Assembly: GCA_025360865.1 (NCBI GenBank)
Contig: JANYBG010000170.1
Coordinates: 1 to 56,492, forward strand
From: Pseudomonadota bacterium
GTDB taxonomy: Bacteria > Pseudomonadota > Gammaproteobacteria > Steroidobacterales > Steroidobacteraceae
Length of the DNA: 56,492 nucleotides
Direction: 5' to 3'
Part shown: in pieces, positions 3,958 to 50,804 of the stretch
Layout of the letters: every line of letters starts with the position of its first letter
Position numbering within the stretch: position 1 is the stretch's first letter
Program-made: the position numbers and the translations under genes
The notes under the pieces: model-generated
Told to the model about the DNA's origin: nothing
The model's input: the letters and a program-made list of their open reading frames with translations, nothing else
Database searches by the model: none

Positions 3958-4389
3958 CTAGGTAGGTGCGCGGCGTTCGATGACGGCCATGGTCAGGCGC
4001 GAGACGCACACCAGTCGCTCACTCTCATCGCGGATCTCTATGTGCCAGACATGGCTGCGCGCGCCGATGTGGTAGGGGCGGGCGGTGGCGGTGACGGTGC
4101 CGGAGGAAATCGAGCGCAGGTGGTTCGCGTTGATCTCCTGGCCGAGCACGATGAACTGCGGGTCCACGCACAGCATGGCGGCCATGCTGCCGACGGTTTC
4201 CGCGAGGGCCACCGAGGCGCCCCCATGCAGCACGCCGAACGGCTGGTGCGTGCGTTCATCGACCGGCATGGTCGCGCGCACGTAGTTAGCGCCGATCTCG
4301 GTGATGCGGATCCCCAAGTGCCCGGGCAGGCTCCTGCTTGCCCGTTCCGTGAGCACCTCAGGGGTGGTCGTGACACGCCAAATTCCCAT
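3958..4389 (-). CDS. Hotdog-fold thioesterase, YdiI/PaaI family
   Basis: A 143-residue acyl-CoA thioesterase of the YdiI (1,4-dihydroxy-2-naphthoyl-CoA hydrolase-like) branch. Conserved elements are TMPVDERTHQPFGVLHGGAS, where His55-Gly-Gly starts the hotdog helix, catalytic Glu64 in ALAETVGS, EINANHLRSI, and the C-terminal LVCVSRLTMAVIE. ATG at 4389 was chosen because the family begins at this point (MGIWR...). The frame stays open further upstream but that sequence is unrelated and runs into the divergent gene at 4457. No menaquinone genes are visible, so the physiological acyl-CoA substrate cannot be named. Only about 67 bp separate this start from the divergent hydrolase gene, so the promoters share that space. 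Confidence 0.88.
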   Translation of the reverse strand: MGIWRVTTTPEVLTERASRSLPGHLGIRITEIGANYVRATMPVDERTHQPFGVLHGGASVALAETVGSMAAMLCVDPQFIVLGQEINANHLRSISSGTVTATARPYHIGARSHVWHIEIRDESERLVCVSRLTMAVIERRAPT

Positions 4390-48656: not shown

Positions 48657-48674
48657 ACTGTATGGGCGTACAGT
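48657..48674 (+). promoter_or_regulatory. LexA (SOS) box upstream of the radical SAM gene
   Basis: ACTGTATGGGCGTACAGT fits the gammaproteobacterial LexA operator CTGT-N8-ACAG exactly, with both outer A/T positions matching and an 8-base centre. It ends 6 bp before the ATG, so LexA bound here would block initiation or early elongation. PA0069 of Pseudomonas and Rv2578c of Mycobacterium, members of the same protein family, are also reported SOS genes. Confidence 0.88.
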
Positions 48675-48680
48675 CTTTTC

Positions 48681-50804
48681 ATGCGGCGCACCATCACTGG
48701 AAAGCAAAACCTGAGCGGACGGGGTGCGCTGTCCAATCCCTCGGGCCGCTTCGACCTGCGGCAGCTGGCTCCCGTCGATGATGGCTGGTACGTCGAGGAA
48801 TCCCCCGACAGCGTCGCCACGACGCTCGAGCCGGAAACCGCACGCAGCATCATCAGCCACAACGACTCGCCGGACGTTCCGTTCGAGTCCTCGATCAATC
48901 CTTATCGCGGATGCGAGTCGGGCTGTGTGTATTGCGTCAGCGGCGACACACCCGTGCTCATGGCTGACGGCGTCACACGCGAGATCGCGCACCTCAAAGT
49001 GGGCGATGAGATCTACGGGACCGAGCGTCGTGGCTGGTATCGCCGCTACGTGAAGACGCGCGTACTCGCTCACTGGAGTGTCATCAAGCCCGCCTATCGG
49101 GTCAAGCTGGAGGACGGAACGGAACTGGTGGCGGGTGCGGATCATCGTTGGCTGACGCGGCGCGGCTGGAAATACACAACTGATACGCAACAAGGCCAGC
49201 AACGCGCGTATCTGAGGCACGGCGACAAACTCATGGGAGTCGGCGCGTTCGCGCGCGCGGAAGAGAAAAATGACGAATACCGGAGGGGCTACCTGTGCGG
49301 AATGATCCGCGGTGACGGCATGCTTACCCCCCGGCGTTTGGTGAATGCCCACGGCGGCGTCGCGCAGCGCGGAGTTTTCCGGCTGCCGGTGTGCGCTACG
49401 CAAGGTCTGGATCGCTCGCAGATTAATCCGCAGGGCTGGTACAGCCAAACGCGCCCGCTTCTTTTTAGCCTCGCGACCGAGCGAGGCCGGACGATGCCGG
49501 CGTTCCAGGGCACATCGCGCGCGCCGGTCGAACACAGCCCCGAGCTGATTGCGTGGCCGGAAACACCCAGCCGCTCATGGCACACCGGGTTTCTCGCGGG
49601 AATCTTCGACGCCGATGGCAGTTACAGCGGCGGGATGATCCGCATTCGCAGCTCCGAGAACGCCATCATCACGCGAATTCGCGCCGCGCTGCGCACGCTG
49701 GATTTCAAGTTCAGCGTCGAACACCCGCCGTTCGCGCACCCCAGGCCGATGGCCGTCGTGCGACTCCTCGGCGGTCTGCGCGAGCTCCTGCGATTCTTCC
49801 ATTCCGTCGATCCGGCGATTGGCGGAAAGCTGGATATTTCCGGTCAAGTCGTGCCGAGCTCCGCGAAATTGGGAGTCGTTTCCATTGAGCCGGTGGGGCG
49901 CGCGATGCGCCTCTACGACGTCACTACGGGCAGCGAGGATTTCATCGCCAACGGTGTTGTCAGCCACAACTGCTATGCCCGACCGAGCCATGCCTATGTA
50001 GGGCTCTCACCGGGTCTCGATTTCGAGACCCGGCTTTTTTATAAGGCGGACGCGGCGAAGGTACTCGAAGCGGAATTGGCCAAGCCAGGGTACGTGTGCA
50101 AACCCATTACGGTTGGCGCCAACACAGACCCTTATCAGCCTGTCGAGCGACGCATGAGGATCACTCGCTCCATTCTCGAGGTATTCGCTCGCACGCGCCA
50201 CCCGGTCACGGTCATCACAAAGCACGCGCTGGTGCTGAGAGACATTGATCTGCTCGCCGATTTGGCGCGAGACGGACTGGCGAGTGTCGCGGTGAGCGTC
50301 ACCAGCCTCGATGCCGAACTGAAGCGCGCTCTTGAGCCGCGCGCGGCATCGCCGCTTGCGCGGTTGCGCGCCGTGAAGGAACTCAATGCGGCGGGTATAC
50401 CGAGCGGAGTTCTGGTCGCCCCCGTCATCCCTGCGCTCACCGACCATGAACTCGAGGCGATCCTGGAGGCGGCCGCTGAAGTCGGAGCGCCGTGGGCTGG
50501 TTACGTGTTGCTGCGTTTGCCATATGAGATCAAGGATCTCTTCTATGAGTGGCTGACGGAGCACTACCCACAACGTGCCGCTCACGTGATGTCCGTCATC
50601 CGCAGCATGCGCGGCGGTCGTGAGAACGACCCGCGCTTCGGAACGCGCATGCGCGGCACGGGCCCCTTCGCGGAGCTGCTGCGGAATCGGTTCCGCATCG
50701 CCTGCAGGCGCCTGAACCTGAATGCCTCAACGCGGGGGCCGCTGAGCACCGCGTTGTTCCGGCCACCGACGCCGCCGGGCTCACAGCTGGGCCTCGGGTT
50801 CTAG
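48681..50804 (+). CDS. PA0069/Rv2578c-family radical SAM protein precursor with intein
   Basis: A 707-residue precursor. Residues 1-84 and 431-707 are a radical SAM protein of the PA0069/Rv2578c (SplB-like) family: NPYRGCESGCVY joins CYARPSHAYVGLSPGLDFE after splicing, giving the CxxxCxxC iron-sulfur motif (Cys78, Cys82 and Cys431 of the precursor). Then come KPITVGANTDPYQPVERR, TVITKHALVLRD and GVLVAPVIPALTDHE. The spliced protein would be about 361 residues, the usual family length. The SAM enzyme probably acts in DNA-damage response; its substrate is unknown. A LexA box directly precedes the ATG. The intein is listed separately. Confidence 0.93.
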   Translation: MRRTITGKQNLSGRGALSNPSGRFDLRQLAPVDDGWYVEESPDSVATTLEPETARSIISHNDSPDVPFESSINPYRGCESGCVYCVSGDTPVLMADGVTREIAHLKVGDEIYGTERRGWYRRYVKTRVLAHWSVIKPAYRVKLEDGTELVAGADHRWLTRRGWKYTTDTQQGQQRAYLRHGDKLMGVGAFARAEEKNDEYRRGYLCGMIRGDGMLTPRRLVNAHGGVAQRGVFRLPVCATQGLDRSQINPQGWYSQTRPLLFSLATERGRTMPAFQGTSRAPVEHSPELIAWPETPSRSWHTGFLAGIFDADGSYSGGMIRIRSSENAIITRIRAALRTLDFKFSVEHPPFAHPRPMAVVRLLGGLRELLRFFHSVDPAIGGKLDISGQVVPSSAKLGVVSIEPVGRAMRLYDVTTGSEDFIANGVVSHNCYARPSHAYVGLSPGLDFETRLFYKADAAKVLEAELAKPGYVCKPITVGANTDPYQPVERRMRITRSILEVFARTRHPVTVITKHALVLRDIDLLADLARDGLASVAVSVTSLDAELKRALEPRAASPLARLRAVKELNAAGIPSGVLVAPVIPALTDHELEAILEAAAEVGAPWAGYVLLRLPYEIKDLFYEWLTEHYPQRAAHVMSVIRSMRGGRENDPRFGTRMRGTGPFAELLRNRFRIACRRLNLNASTRGPLSTALFRPPTPPGSQLGLGF
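48933..49970 (+). other. Intein with LAGLIDADG homing endonuclease (346 aa)
   Basis: An in-frame insertion of 346 residues (85-430 of the precursor). It starts with Cys85 in CVSGDTPVLMADG (block A), has block B GTELVAGADHRWLTRRG with His155, and ends in DFIANGVVSHN (blocks F/G), with the extein +1 residue Cys431. The central part holds two DOD endonuclease motifs, YLCGMIRGDG (204-213) and GFLAGIFDADG (303-313), with their acidic residues, so the endonuclease may be active. In block B the usual Thr of TxxH is Gly152. The first and last nucleophiles and the terminal His-Asn are present, so splicing competence is expected. Confidence 0.93.

What the first reader, a model, noticed from the sequence alone, without database searches (positions are those of the whole stretch)
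48933..49970. Intein inserted exactly at an iron-sulfur cysteine of a radical SAM enzyme
The insertion begins with Cys85 and ends in His-Asn before Cys431. Splicing recreates GCVY-CYARPSH, so the +1 nucleophile is also the third ligand of the CxxxCxxC cluster. The intein's own first Cys occupies the same place in the precursor, giving CESGCVYC before splicing. The precursor could therefore transiently bind a cluster, and cluster formation or redox state could influence splicing. This fits the idea of inteins as redox or metal sensors. Inteins are known, to my knowledge, in some Rv2578c-family proteins, but this host, its SOS control and the intact endonuclease motifs make the case attractive.
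Basis: partly seen in the sequence, partly recalled or inferred. Interest (0 to 1): 0.85.

Follow-up and report, generated by a model that had tools for sequence, protein, structure and literature searches.

The report
Intein at radical-SAM cluster cysteine
A self-splicing protein insert (intein) sits exactly at one of the three cysteines that should hold the iron-sulfur cluster of a probable DNA-repair enzyme; it belongs to an already known, widespread kind of mobile element, and the idea that it senses oxidation remains untested.

Summary
Window 48933-49970 (+) encodes a 346-residue intein, Cys85-Asn430 of a 707-residue ORF. Cys431 is the +1 nucleophile and third cysteine of the host's CxxxCxxC motif. 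The host is a PA0069-family radical SAM protein, not Rv2578c itself. Of 37 same-genus genomes, 12 carry the insert and 18 have the empty site; the 17 empty sites I read show the predicted junction. NCBI already models an intein at this site in Rv2578c proteins, and a genome scan found 550 related stretches (80 fetched). So this is a homing intein, in a genus showing two-acid, decayed and deleted endonucleases. The window's endonuclease keeps both acidic residues but departs from 10 of 57 conserved positions (median 2), so it may be decaying. The SOS box is real and lies upstream of most genus copies with or without intein: it belongs to the host gene. The sensor idea is untested here and not original: the Cys-3/Cys1 pair is a reported redox trap in the Pyrococcus abyssi MoaA intein. 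The extein cysteines are fixed by the host enzyme, and the patchy distribution argues against a required regulatory role.

The parts
48658..48673 (.). SOS (LexA-type) box CTGT-N8-ACAG before the gene
   Evidence: Sequence; one of three TACTGTN8ACAG sites in the genome, another lies 11 bases before the lexA ORF; same position in 27 of 29 genus copies with at most 1 mismatch (18 of 29 exact), 0 of 1890 control windows exact
48681..50804 (+). Whole gene: PA0069-family radical SAM precursor, 707 aa
   Evidence: NF033668 480.4 bits, cut-off 360
48681..48932 (+). N-extein, 84 aa, with cluster ligands Cys78 (-7) and Cys82 (-3)
   Evidence: both invariant in the 67-row alignment, whose rows were picked by a pattern that asked for the motif
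48933..49970 (+). Intein, 346 aa, Cys1 to His-Asn
48933..49253 (+). N-terminal splicing part (blocks A and B; Cys1, His71), boundary approximate
   Evidence: conserved columns; TIGR01445
49254..49808 (+). LAGLIDADG homing endonuclease part, boundaries approximate
   Evidence: PF14528; profile match to I-DmoI chains; Foldseek
49287..49319 (+). First LAGLIDADG motif GYLCGMIRGDG, acid Asp at 49314-49316
49587..49619 (+). Second LAGLIDADG motif GFLAGIFDADG, acid Asp at 49614-49616
49809..49970 (+). C-terminal splicing part (blocks F and G; Asp329, His345, Asn346), boundary approximate
   Evidence: invariant columns; TIGR01443 on the whole protein
49971..50801 (+). C-extein, 277 aa; starts with Cys431, +1 nucleophile and third cluster ligand
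   Evidence: PF04055

Best explanation
This is a Cys1/Cys+1 (class 1 type) homing intein carrying a LAGLIDADG endonuclease part, inserted just before the third cysteine of the CxxxCxxC motif of a PA0069-family radical SAM enzyme with an SOS box. Translation gives an inactive 707-residue precursor; the intein excises itself by Cys1 acyl shift, transfer to Cys431, Asn346 cyclisation and ligation, giving a 361-residue enzyme whose regained third cysteine completes the cluster motif. The site was chosen because it is a highly conserved stretch of the gene and offers a nucleophile at +1: a homing endonuclease keeps its target and the host cannot lose the insert without an exact deletion. The intein spreads laterally between alleles and then decays. 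Shown by sequence: site, motifs, empty alleles, patchy distribution, signs of lateral movement, decay of the endonuclease with retention of splicing residues. Inferred: that splicing occurs, that the precursor is inactive, that the endonuclease ever cut this site, and why this site was chosen.
For: Family models and same-site match. 18 of 30 genus genes found are empty by coordinates, 17 of them read. Presence/absence needs at least 7 changes on a tree of 28 genus exteins. Splicing residues invariant in the 12 genus inteins; same junction in 78 of 80 fetched genome loci. Holding 14 inteins (11 of the genus and three near relatives) together is rejected (AU p 0.0007) while their exteins are one side of a branch (support 85). 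L060/L069: extein dS 0.45 but intein dS 0.14-0.16, with high identity reaching into the N flank. In L024/L027 the endonuclease has omega 1.01 and the splicing part 0.37; mini-intein L028. Fold matches: PI-SceI, PI-PfuI, TliVMA inteins, I-DmoI; spore photoproduct lyase for the host.
Against: No splicing experiment. PF14890 is below its cut-off. Block B has Gly, not the usual Thr, three residues before His71 (consensus recalled). The splicing part alone does not reject the 14-row group (p 0.25), and that group was named after seeing the trees. The 11 genus rows alone are rejected as one clade by inteins (p 3.7e-15), but they are not one clade on the extein tree either (4 changes vs 6). Phylum labels change only slightly more often on the intein tree than on the extein tree (12 vs 10), so most movement is within phyla. 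High endonuclease omega is not confined to decayed copies (0.72 in L098/L118, 0.76 in L113/L107). The precursor model has pTM 0.53.
Confidence: 0.94

Rival explanations
1. Redox-gated intein: under oxidising conditions Cys82 (-3) and Cys85 (1) form a disulfide that blocks the first splicing step, so the oxygen-sensitive enzyme is made only when the cell is reducing. The intein is then kept partly because it helps the host.
For: Cys-3 and Cys1 are both present in the 12 genus inteins and the 78 parsed genome loci (my pattern asked for the motif, and 78 of 80 loci met it). The same pair is reported as a native disulfide that controls splicing in the Pab MoaA intein (passages). AlphaFold gives confidence below 50 to residues 77-82, so the loop may be flexible.
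Against: Cys-3 is a host ligand and would be kept anyway. 18 of 30 genus genes do without the intein. No other intein cysteine is invariant. Bacterial cytosol is reducing (recalled). The distribution fits lateral spread and loss.
Confidence: 0.12
2. Cluster-gated intein: Cys78, Cys82 and Cys85 of the precursor bind an iron-sulfur cluster or metal before splicing, blocking Cys1 until the cluster is lost or moved to the spliced enzyme.
For: The precursor does read CESGCVYC, and Cys1 is Cys in 90 of 90 aligned inteins, three of them duplicates.
Against: Follows trivially from any Cys1 intein before Cys+1. Most of the barrel expected to hold the cluster lies in the C-extein, and both flanks of the motif (77-82, 432-441) have low model confidence in the precursor. 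Cys1 must lie in the intein active site to react (recalled).
Confidence: 0.03
3. Purely selfish, still actively homing intein whose endonuclease is made only in the SOS response, when RecA-dependent repair is also on, so that homing is timed to recombination.
For: SOS box before the gene and before lexA; box conserved in the genus; recent lateral transfer in L060/L069.
Against: With at most one mismatch the box is as common at empty alleles (16 of 17) as at intein alleles (11 of 12). No exact box was found before 12 of 16 intein-bearing betaproteobacterial copies, one of them with only 112 bases searched. Class-wide it is exact in 1 of 25 scored PA0069 loci and within one mismatch in 3 of 25. 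The window's endonuclease departs from 10 of 57 conserved positions.
Confidence: 0.15
4. Dead intein or assembly artefact: the insert no longer splices and the host gene is silent.
For: The window intein is among the more diverged (9 of 74 conserved splicing columns changed, median 3); some relatives are broken (L010).
Against: Frame open; splicing residues intact; host family score 480 bits; box kept; nine other genus genes with the intein align over at least 686 of 707 query residues without stops.
Confidence: 0.05

Closest known systems
NF038136, intein-containing Rv2578c family radical SAM protein (NCBIfam)
   Same: Intein at the identical position (profile 76-334), E 5.9e-68 for the insert alone
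   Different: Host extein here is PA0069 family; whole protein scores 474.3 against a cut-off of 700
Pyrococcus abyssi MoaA intein (Callahan et al. 2011; seen only through passages of PMC3922620 and PMC10663303; the paper itself is not held)
   Same: Radical SAM host (recalled), Cys-3 and Cys1; -3 implies the third cysteine of a CxxxCxxC motif (inference)
   Different: Different host enzyme and organism; there the disulfide was reported, here nothing was measured; intein sequences were not compared
Mycobacterium smegmatis DnaBi1 intein as oxidative stress sensor (PMC6195587, passages)
   Same: Cysteine-based redox control of an intein
   Different: Class 3 intein with an internal Cys48-Cys118 disulfide; DnaB helicase host
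LAGLIDADG inteins PI-SceI, PI-PfuI, TliVMA and the endonuclease I-DmoI
   Same: Fold matches of the precursor model, profile match to I-DmoI
   Different: About 13-17% identity in these structure matches, other hosts and sites

Membership tests
Intein (class 1 type) | Nucleophile at position 1 (Cys) in block A | tested here: met
   Cys85; 90 of 90 aligned inteins, 3 duplicates
Intein (class 1 type) | Block B with His (TxxH in the recalled consensus) | tested here: inconclusive
   His71 of the intein invariant in 12 of 12; the Thr is Gly in the window
Intein (class 1 type) | Penultimate His, terminal Asn, +1 Cys/Ser/Thr | tested here: met
   HN|C; same in 12 of 12 genus inteins
Intein (class 1 type) | Homologues without insert have the exact joined sequence | tested here: met
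   17 same-genus empty sites read
Intein (class 1 type) | Curated splicing-domain models over cut-off | tested here: inconclusive
   TIGR01445 met by the insert alone, TIGR01443 by the whole protein alone; PF14890 not met
Intein (class 1 type) | Splicing activity | not testable with these tools
   needs expression
LAGLIDADG homing endonuclease | Two LAGLIDADG motifs each with an acidic residue | tested here: met
   GYLCGMIRGDG and GFLAGIFDADG; both acids in 83 of 87 unique inteins
LAGLIDADG homing endonuclease | Other conserved endonuclease positions kept | tested here: inconclusive
   10 of 57 changed in the window, median 2 among 82 inteins not set aside as decayed
PA0069 family radical SAM protein (NF033668) | Score over curated cut-off | tested here: met
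   480.4 vs 360
Intein-containing Rv2578c family (NF038136) | Score over curated cut-off | tested here: not met
   474.3 vs 700
Redox-trap intein (Pab MoaA type) | Cys at -3 and Cys at 1 | tested here: met
   Cys82 and Cys85
Redox-trap intein (Pab MoaA type) | Cys-3/Cys1 disulfide that stops splicing | not testable with these tools
   needs biochemistry; the model's coordinates were not among the files listed, so no distance was measured

The most novel reading that the evidence does not exclude
A widely mobile intein has settled at a cluster cysteine of an SOS-controlled, spore-photoproduct-lyase-like enzyme, so that assembly of the enzyme's iron-sulfur site is gated twice: LexA decides when the precursor is made, and the Cys-3/Cys1 pair (possibly with Cys-7) lets it splice only when the cytosol is reducing enough for the cluster to survive.
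Probability: 0.08. Interest if true: 0.7.

Novelty: new member of a known kind. Interest (0 to 1): 0.34.

Why it matters
Its use is as a natural experiment: one genus holds empty alleles, two-acid inteins, decayed-endonuclease inteins and a mini-intein at the same cluster cysteine, most of them behind the same SOS box, so the claim that inteins at metal-site cysteines are redox sensors can be tested against matched empty alleles. The PA0069 host itself looks like a damage-inducible relative of spore photoproduct lyase and deserves study on its own.

Tried and rejected
Considered that the insert might be a non-intein domain or an assembly join: rejected by the same-genus empty sites and the 12 genus inteins. 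Considered that the intein brought the SOS box: rejected, since empty alleles carry it. Considered rampant transfer between phyla, suggested by pairs with about 60% intein and 29% extein identity: weakened, because the 80 loci were the best by intein similarity and because phylum labels change nearly as seldom on the intein tree as on the extein tree (12 vs 10). Considered a second conserved metal-binding cysteine inside the intein: none is invariant besides Cys1 (position 122 is Cys in 77 of 90). Searched phage and plasmid collections for carriers: 2 and 2 records, all under 60% identity; viral contigs gave 92 relatives, 80 kept, the best 29% identical and in another gene (the other 79 were not examined). 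PADLOC: no family. Literature: no paper held with both 'intein' and 'Rv2578c'; 'PA0069' with 'LexA' none; 'PA0069' three papers, listing only; other intein searches seen as listings only, with passages read of PMC10663303, PMC3922620 and PMC6195587. That PA0069 is SOS-regulated in Pseudomonas aeruginosa is recalled, not seen.

Rows dropped: of 80 genome loci, L126 (contig starts inside the intein) and L072 (penultimate His reads Leu; my pattern missed it) were left out of the 78. L066, L075 and L097 have the same intein DNA as L018, L021 and L022 and were removed from the counts but not. (and so the AlphaFold job) used the window and 66 of the 68 references listed, without L060 and L109. L028 was left out of the trees (short), L053 and L058 out (short exteins), L045 (frameshift) out. 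In one search, 5 of 30 class loci were not scored because my motif pattern failed. Only 30 loci were fetched, where 89 genomes have a match over the cut-off. My junction pattern itself asked for the cluster motif, so '78 of 80' is the informative figure.

Full report
OBSERVATION. The window holds an ORF at 48681-50804 (+), 707 aa. Reading the DNA, codon 85 is TGC at 48933 and begins CVSGDTPVLMADG; the insert ends with His-Asn at 49970; TGC at 49971 begins CYARPSH. The insert is 346 aa and the joined protein would be 361 aa. The precursor motif reads GCESGCVYC and the joined motif GCESGCVY-CYARPSH.

IDENTITY. The insert alone matches NF038136 (intein-containing Rv2578c family radical SAM protein), E 5.9e-68, from profile position 76 to 334, so an intein at this exact site is already part of a named NCBI family. 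TIGR01445 passes its cut-off on the insert alone (and falls just below on the whole protein), TIGR01443 passes on the whole protein, LAGLIDADG_3 passes, PF14890 does not. The host is PA0069 family (NF033668, 480.4 bits, cut-off 360) and fails both Rv2578c models. A profile of 67 precursors finds I-DmoI and other inteins in the insert and, weakly, NifB in the host. An AlphaFold model of the precursor (mean pLDDT 81.4, pTM 0.53) matches LAGLIDADG inteins (TliVMA, PI-SceI, PI-PfuI), I-DmoI, and spore photoproduct lyase, the last from rank 45 at E about 1e-5.

EMPTY SITES. Among 60 relatives searched, 37 are of the window's genus, the window included. Twelve carry the intein, 18 have two extein matches that abut, 6 have no match and 1 (G276) has only a weak partial match; several genomes are incomplete. 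I read 17 of the 18 empty sites: each has GCxxxCxx-C followed by Y or F, A or S, R at the junction. On a tree of 28 genus exteins (12 with, 16 without) presence needs at least 7 changes. In a class-wide draw, 89 of 274 genomes have a PA0069-family match over the cut-off, while close relatives of the intein appear in 2 of 274, the window's own and G040; the other six matches are weak (E 1.7e-6 to 9.5e-6) and lie in open frames of 1096-1370 aa.

DISTRIBUTION. 78 of 80 could be parsed and these have Cys1 right after C-x3-C-x2 and His-Asn before a +1 Cys; I did not look at the other 470. By record title they come from Pseudomonadota, Actinomycetota, Omnitrophota, Myxococcota, Planctomycetota, Gemmatimonadota, Rhodothermota and Elusimicrobiota. 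Phages, plasmids and viral contigs gave only distant ones.

MOBILITY AND DECAY. The 11 full-length genus rows and three near relatives (L054, L063, L074) are one side of a branch on the extein tree (support 85), but their inteins fall in several places, and holding the 14 together is rejected for the inteins (AU p 0.0007). Against this: the splicing part alone does not reject it (p 0.25); the 14-row group was named after seeing the trees; the stronger figure for the 11 genus rows (p 3.7e-15) is not a fair contrast, since these 11 are not one clade on the extein tree either (4 changes vs 6); and phylum labels change 12 times on the intein tree against 10 on the extein tree, so movement is mostly local. 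L060 and L069 have extein dS 0.45 but intein dS 0.14-0.16, and the high-identity tract runs through the N flank and drops soon after the C junction, as expected of recent homing with co-conversion. In 83 of 87 unique inteins both acids of the LAGLIDADG motifs are present; both are lost in L026 and L027, one in L070, and L028 is a 158-aa mini-intein. In L024/L027 the endonuclease has omega 1.01 and the splicing part 0.37; in L024/L025 0.68 and 0.38, extein 0.26. Two pairs that keep both acids also have high endonuclease omega (0.72, 0.76), and many pairs are near saturation, so these ratios are rough. The window keeps both acids but departs from 10 of 57 conserved endonuclease columns, tied highest among the 82 inteins not set aside as decayed (median 2), and from 9 of 74 splicing columns (median 3). 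Its endonuclease may be losing function.

SOS CONTROL. CTGTATGGGCGTACAG lies at 48658-48673, 7 bp before the ATG. The longer form TACTGTN8ACAG occurs three times in the genome (the pattern read backwards once): here; 11 bases before the lexA ORF; and abutting the start codon of the longest ORF of a rSAM_link_UDG gene, another putative DNA modification/repair radical SAM protein. The shorter form is not specific (15 places vs 12 for the control). At 274-281 bases before the junction, 18 of 29 genus genes have the exact box (9 of 12 with intein, 9 of 17 without) and 27 of 29 at most one mismatch (11 of 12 and 16 of 17); 0 of 1890 control windows are exact and 1.6% have at most one mismatch. In the wider class 1 of 25 scored loci is exact and 3 of 25 have at most one mismatch. 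So SOS control, as far as a box shows it, belongs to the host gene in this genus.

SENSOR IDEA. What speaks for it is Cys-3 with Cys1 and the Pab MoaA precedent: two reviews describe a Cys-3/Cys1 (or N-extein/Cys1) disulfide that controls or blocks splicing (passages; the original is not held). What speaks against: the extein cysteines are fixed by catalysis, a Cys1 intein before a Cys+1 always duplicates the cysteine, no further intein cysteine is invariant, and 18 of 30 genus genes live without the intein. The model gives residues 77-82 and 432-441 confidence under 50, which fits a disordered cluster loop in the precursor but is weak. I rate physiological redox gating at about 0.1 and cluster binding by the precursor lower.

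VERDICT.

Noticed in passing
L028:1174-1647 (G309): 158-residue mini-intein at the same site, with no endonuclease part but the splicing residues kept.
   Followed up: yes
L060 and L069: Two Betaproteobacteria bins with the same sample label (FW602) share a nearly identical intein and N flank while the C-extein is more diverged: a probable recent homing event with co-conversion.
   Followed up: yes
L010:1438-2229 (G040): The related intein gene is cut after about 163 intein residues; the overlapping ORF 732-1619 looks like a REP-type transposase (label recalled), so the host gene is broken.
   Followed up: partly
L072, C-terminal intein junction near 4038: Penultimate His of the intein reads Leu (GVISLN|C), which should impair Asn cyclisation.
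   Followed up: no
L045 (G296), about 12-18 bases after the empty site: An empty allele has a frameshift within about 18 bases of the insertion point; assembly error, or misrepair of an endonuclease cut.
   Followed up: partly
G000:C40:22516-22533 (L208:1501-1518): SOS box abutting a rSAM_link_UDG gene (TIGR03916, 566 bits): two radical SAM genes of probable DNA repair function in one predicted LexA regulon.
   Followed up: partly
L210:177-803 and 866-1489: The lexA ORF is followed by an ORF that looks like ImuA (label recalled), i.e. a lexA-imuA type mutagenesis operon.
   Followed up: no
L127:3001-4050: Viral contig with a full-length 29%-identical intein in a protein that looks like a RecB-type PD-(D/E)XK nuclease (label recalled).
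   Followed up: no
NZ_CP129127.1:81504-82508: Streptomyces plasmid encodes a full-length 28%-identical relative of the intein where the (incomplete) PLSDB gene table lists nothing.
   Followed up: no
L063 and L074: Two contigs of one metagenome bin (JANWKL01) each carry this gene with a different intein, suggesting a mixed bin.
   Followed up: no
L056: The bin titled Bordetella parapertussis groups with uncultured Betaproteobacteria bins on both trees; the title may be a misnomer.
   Followed up: no
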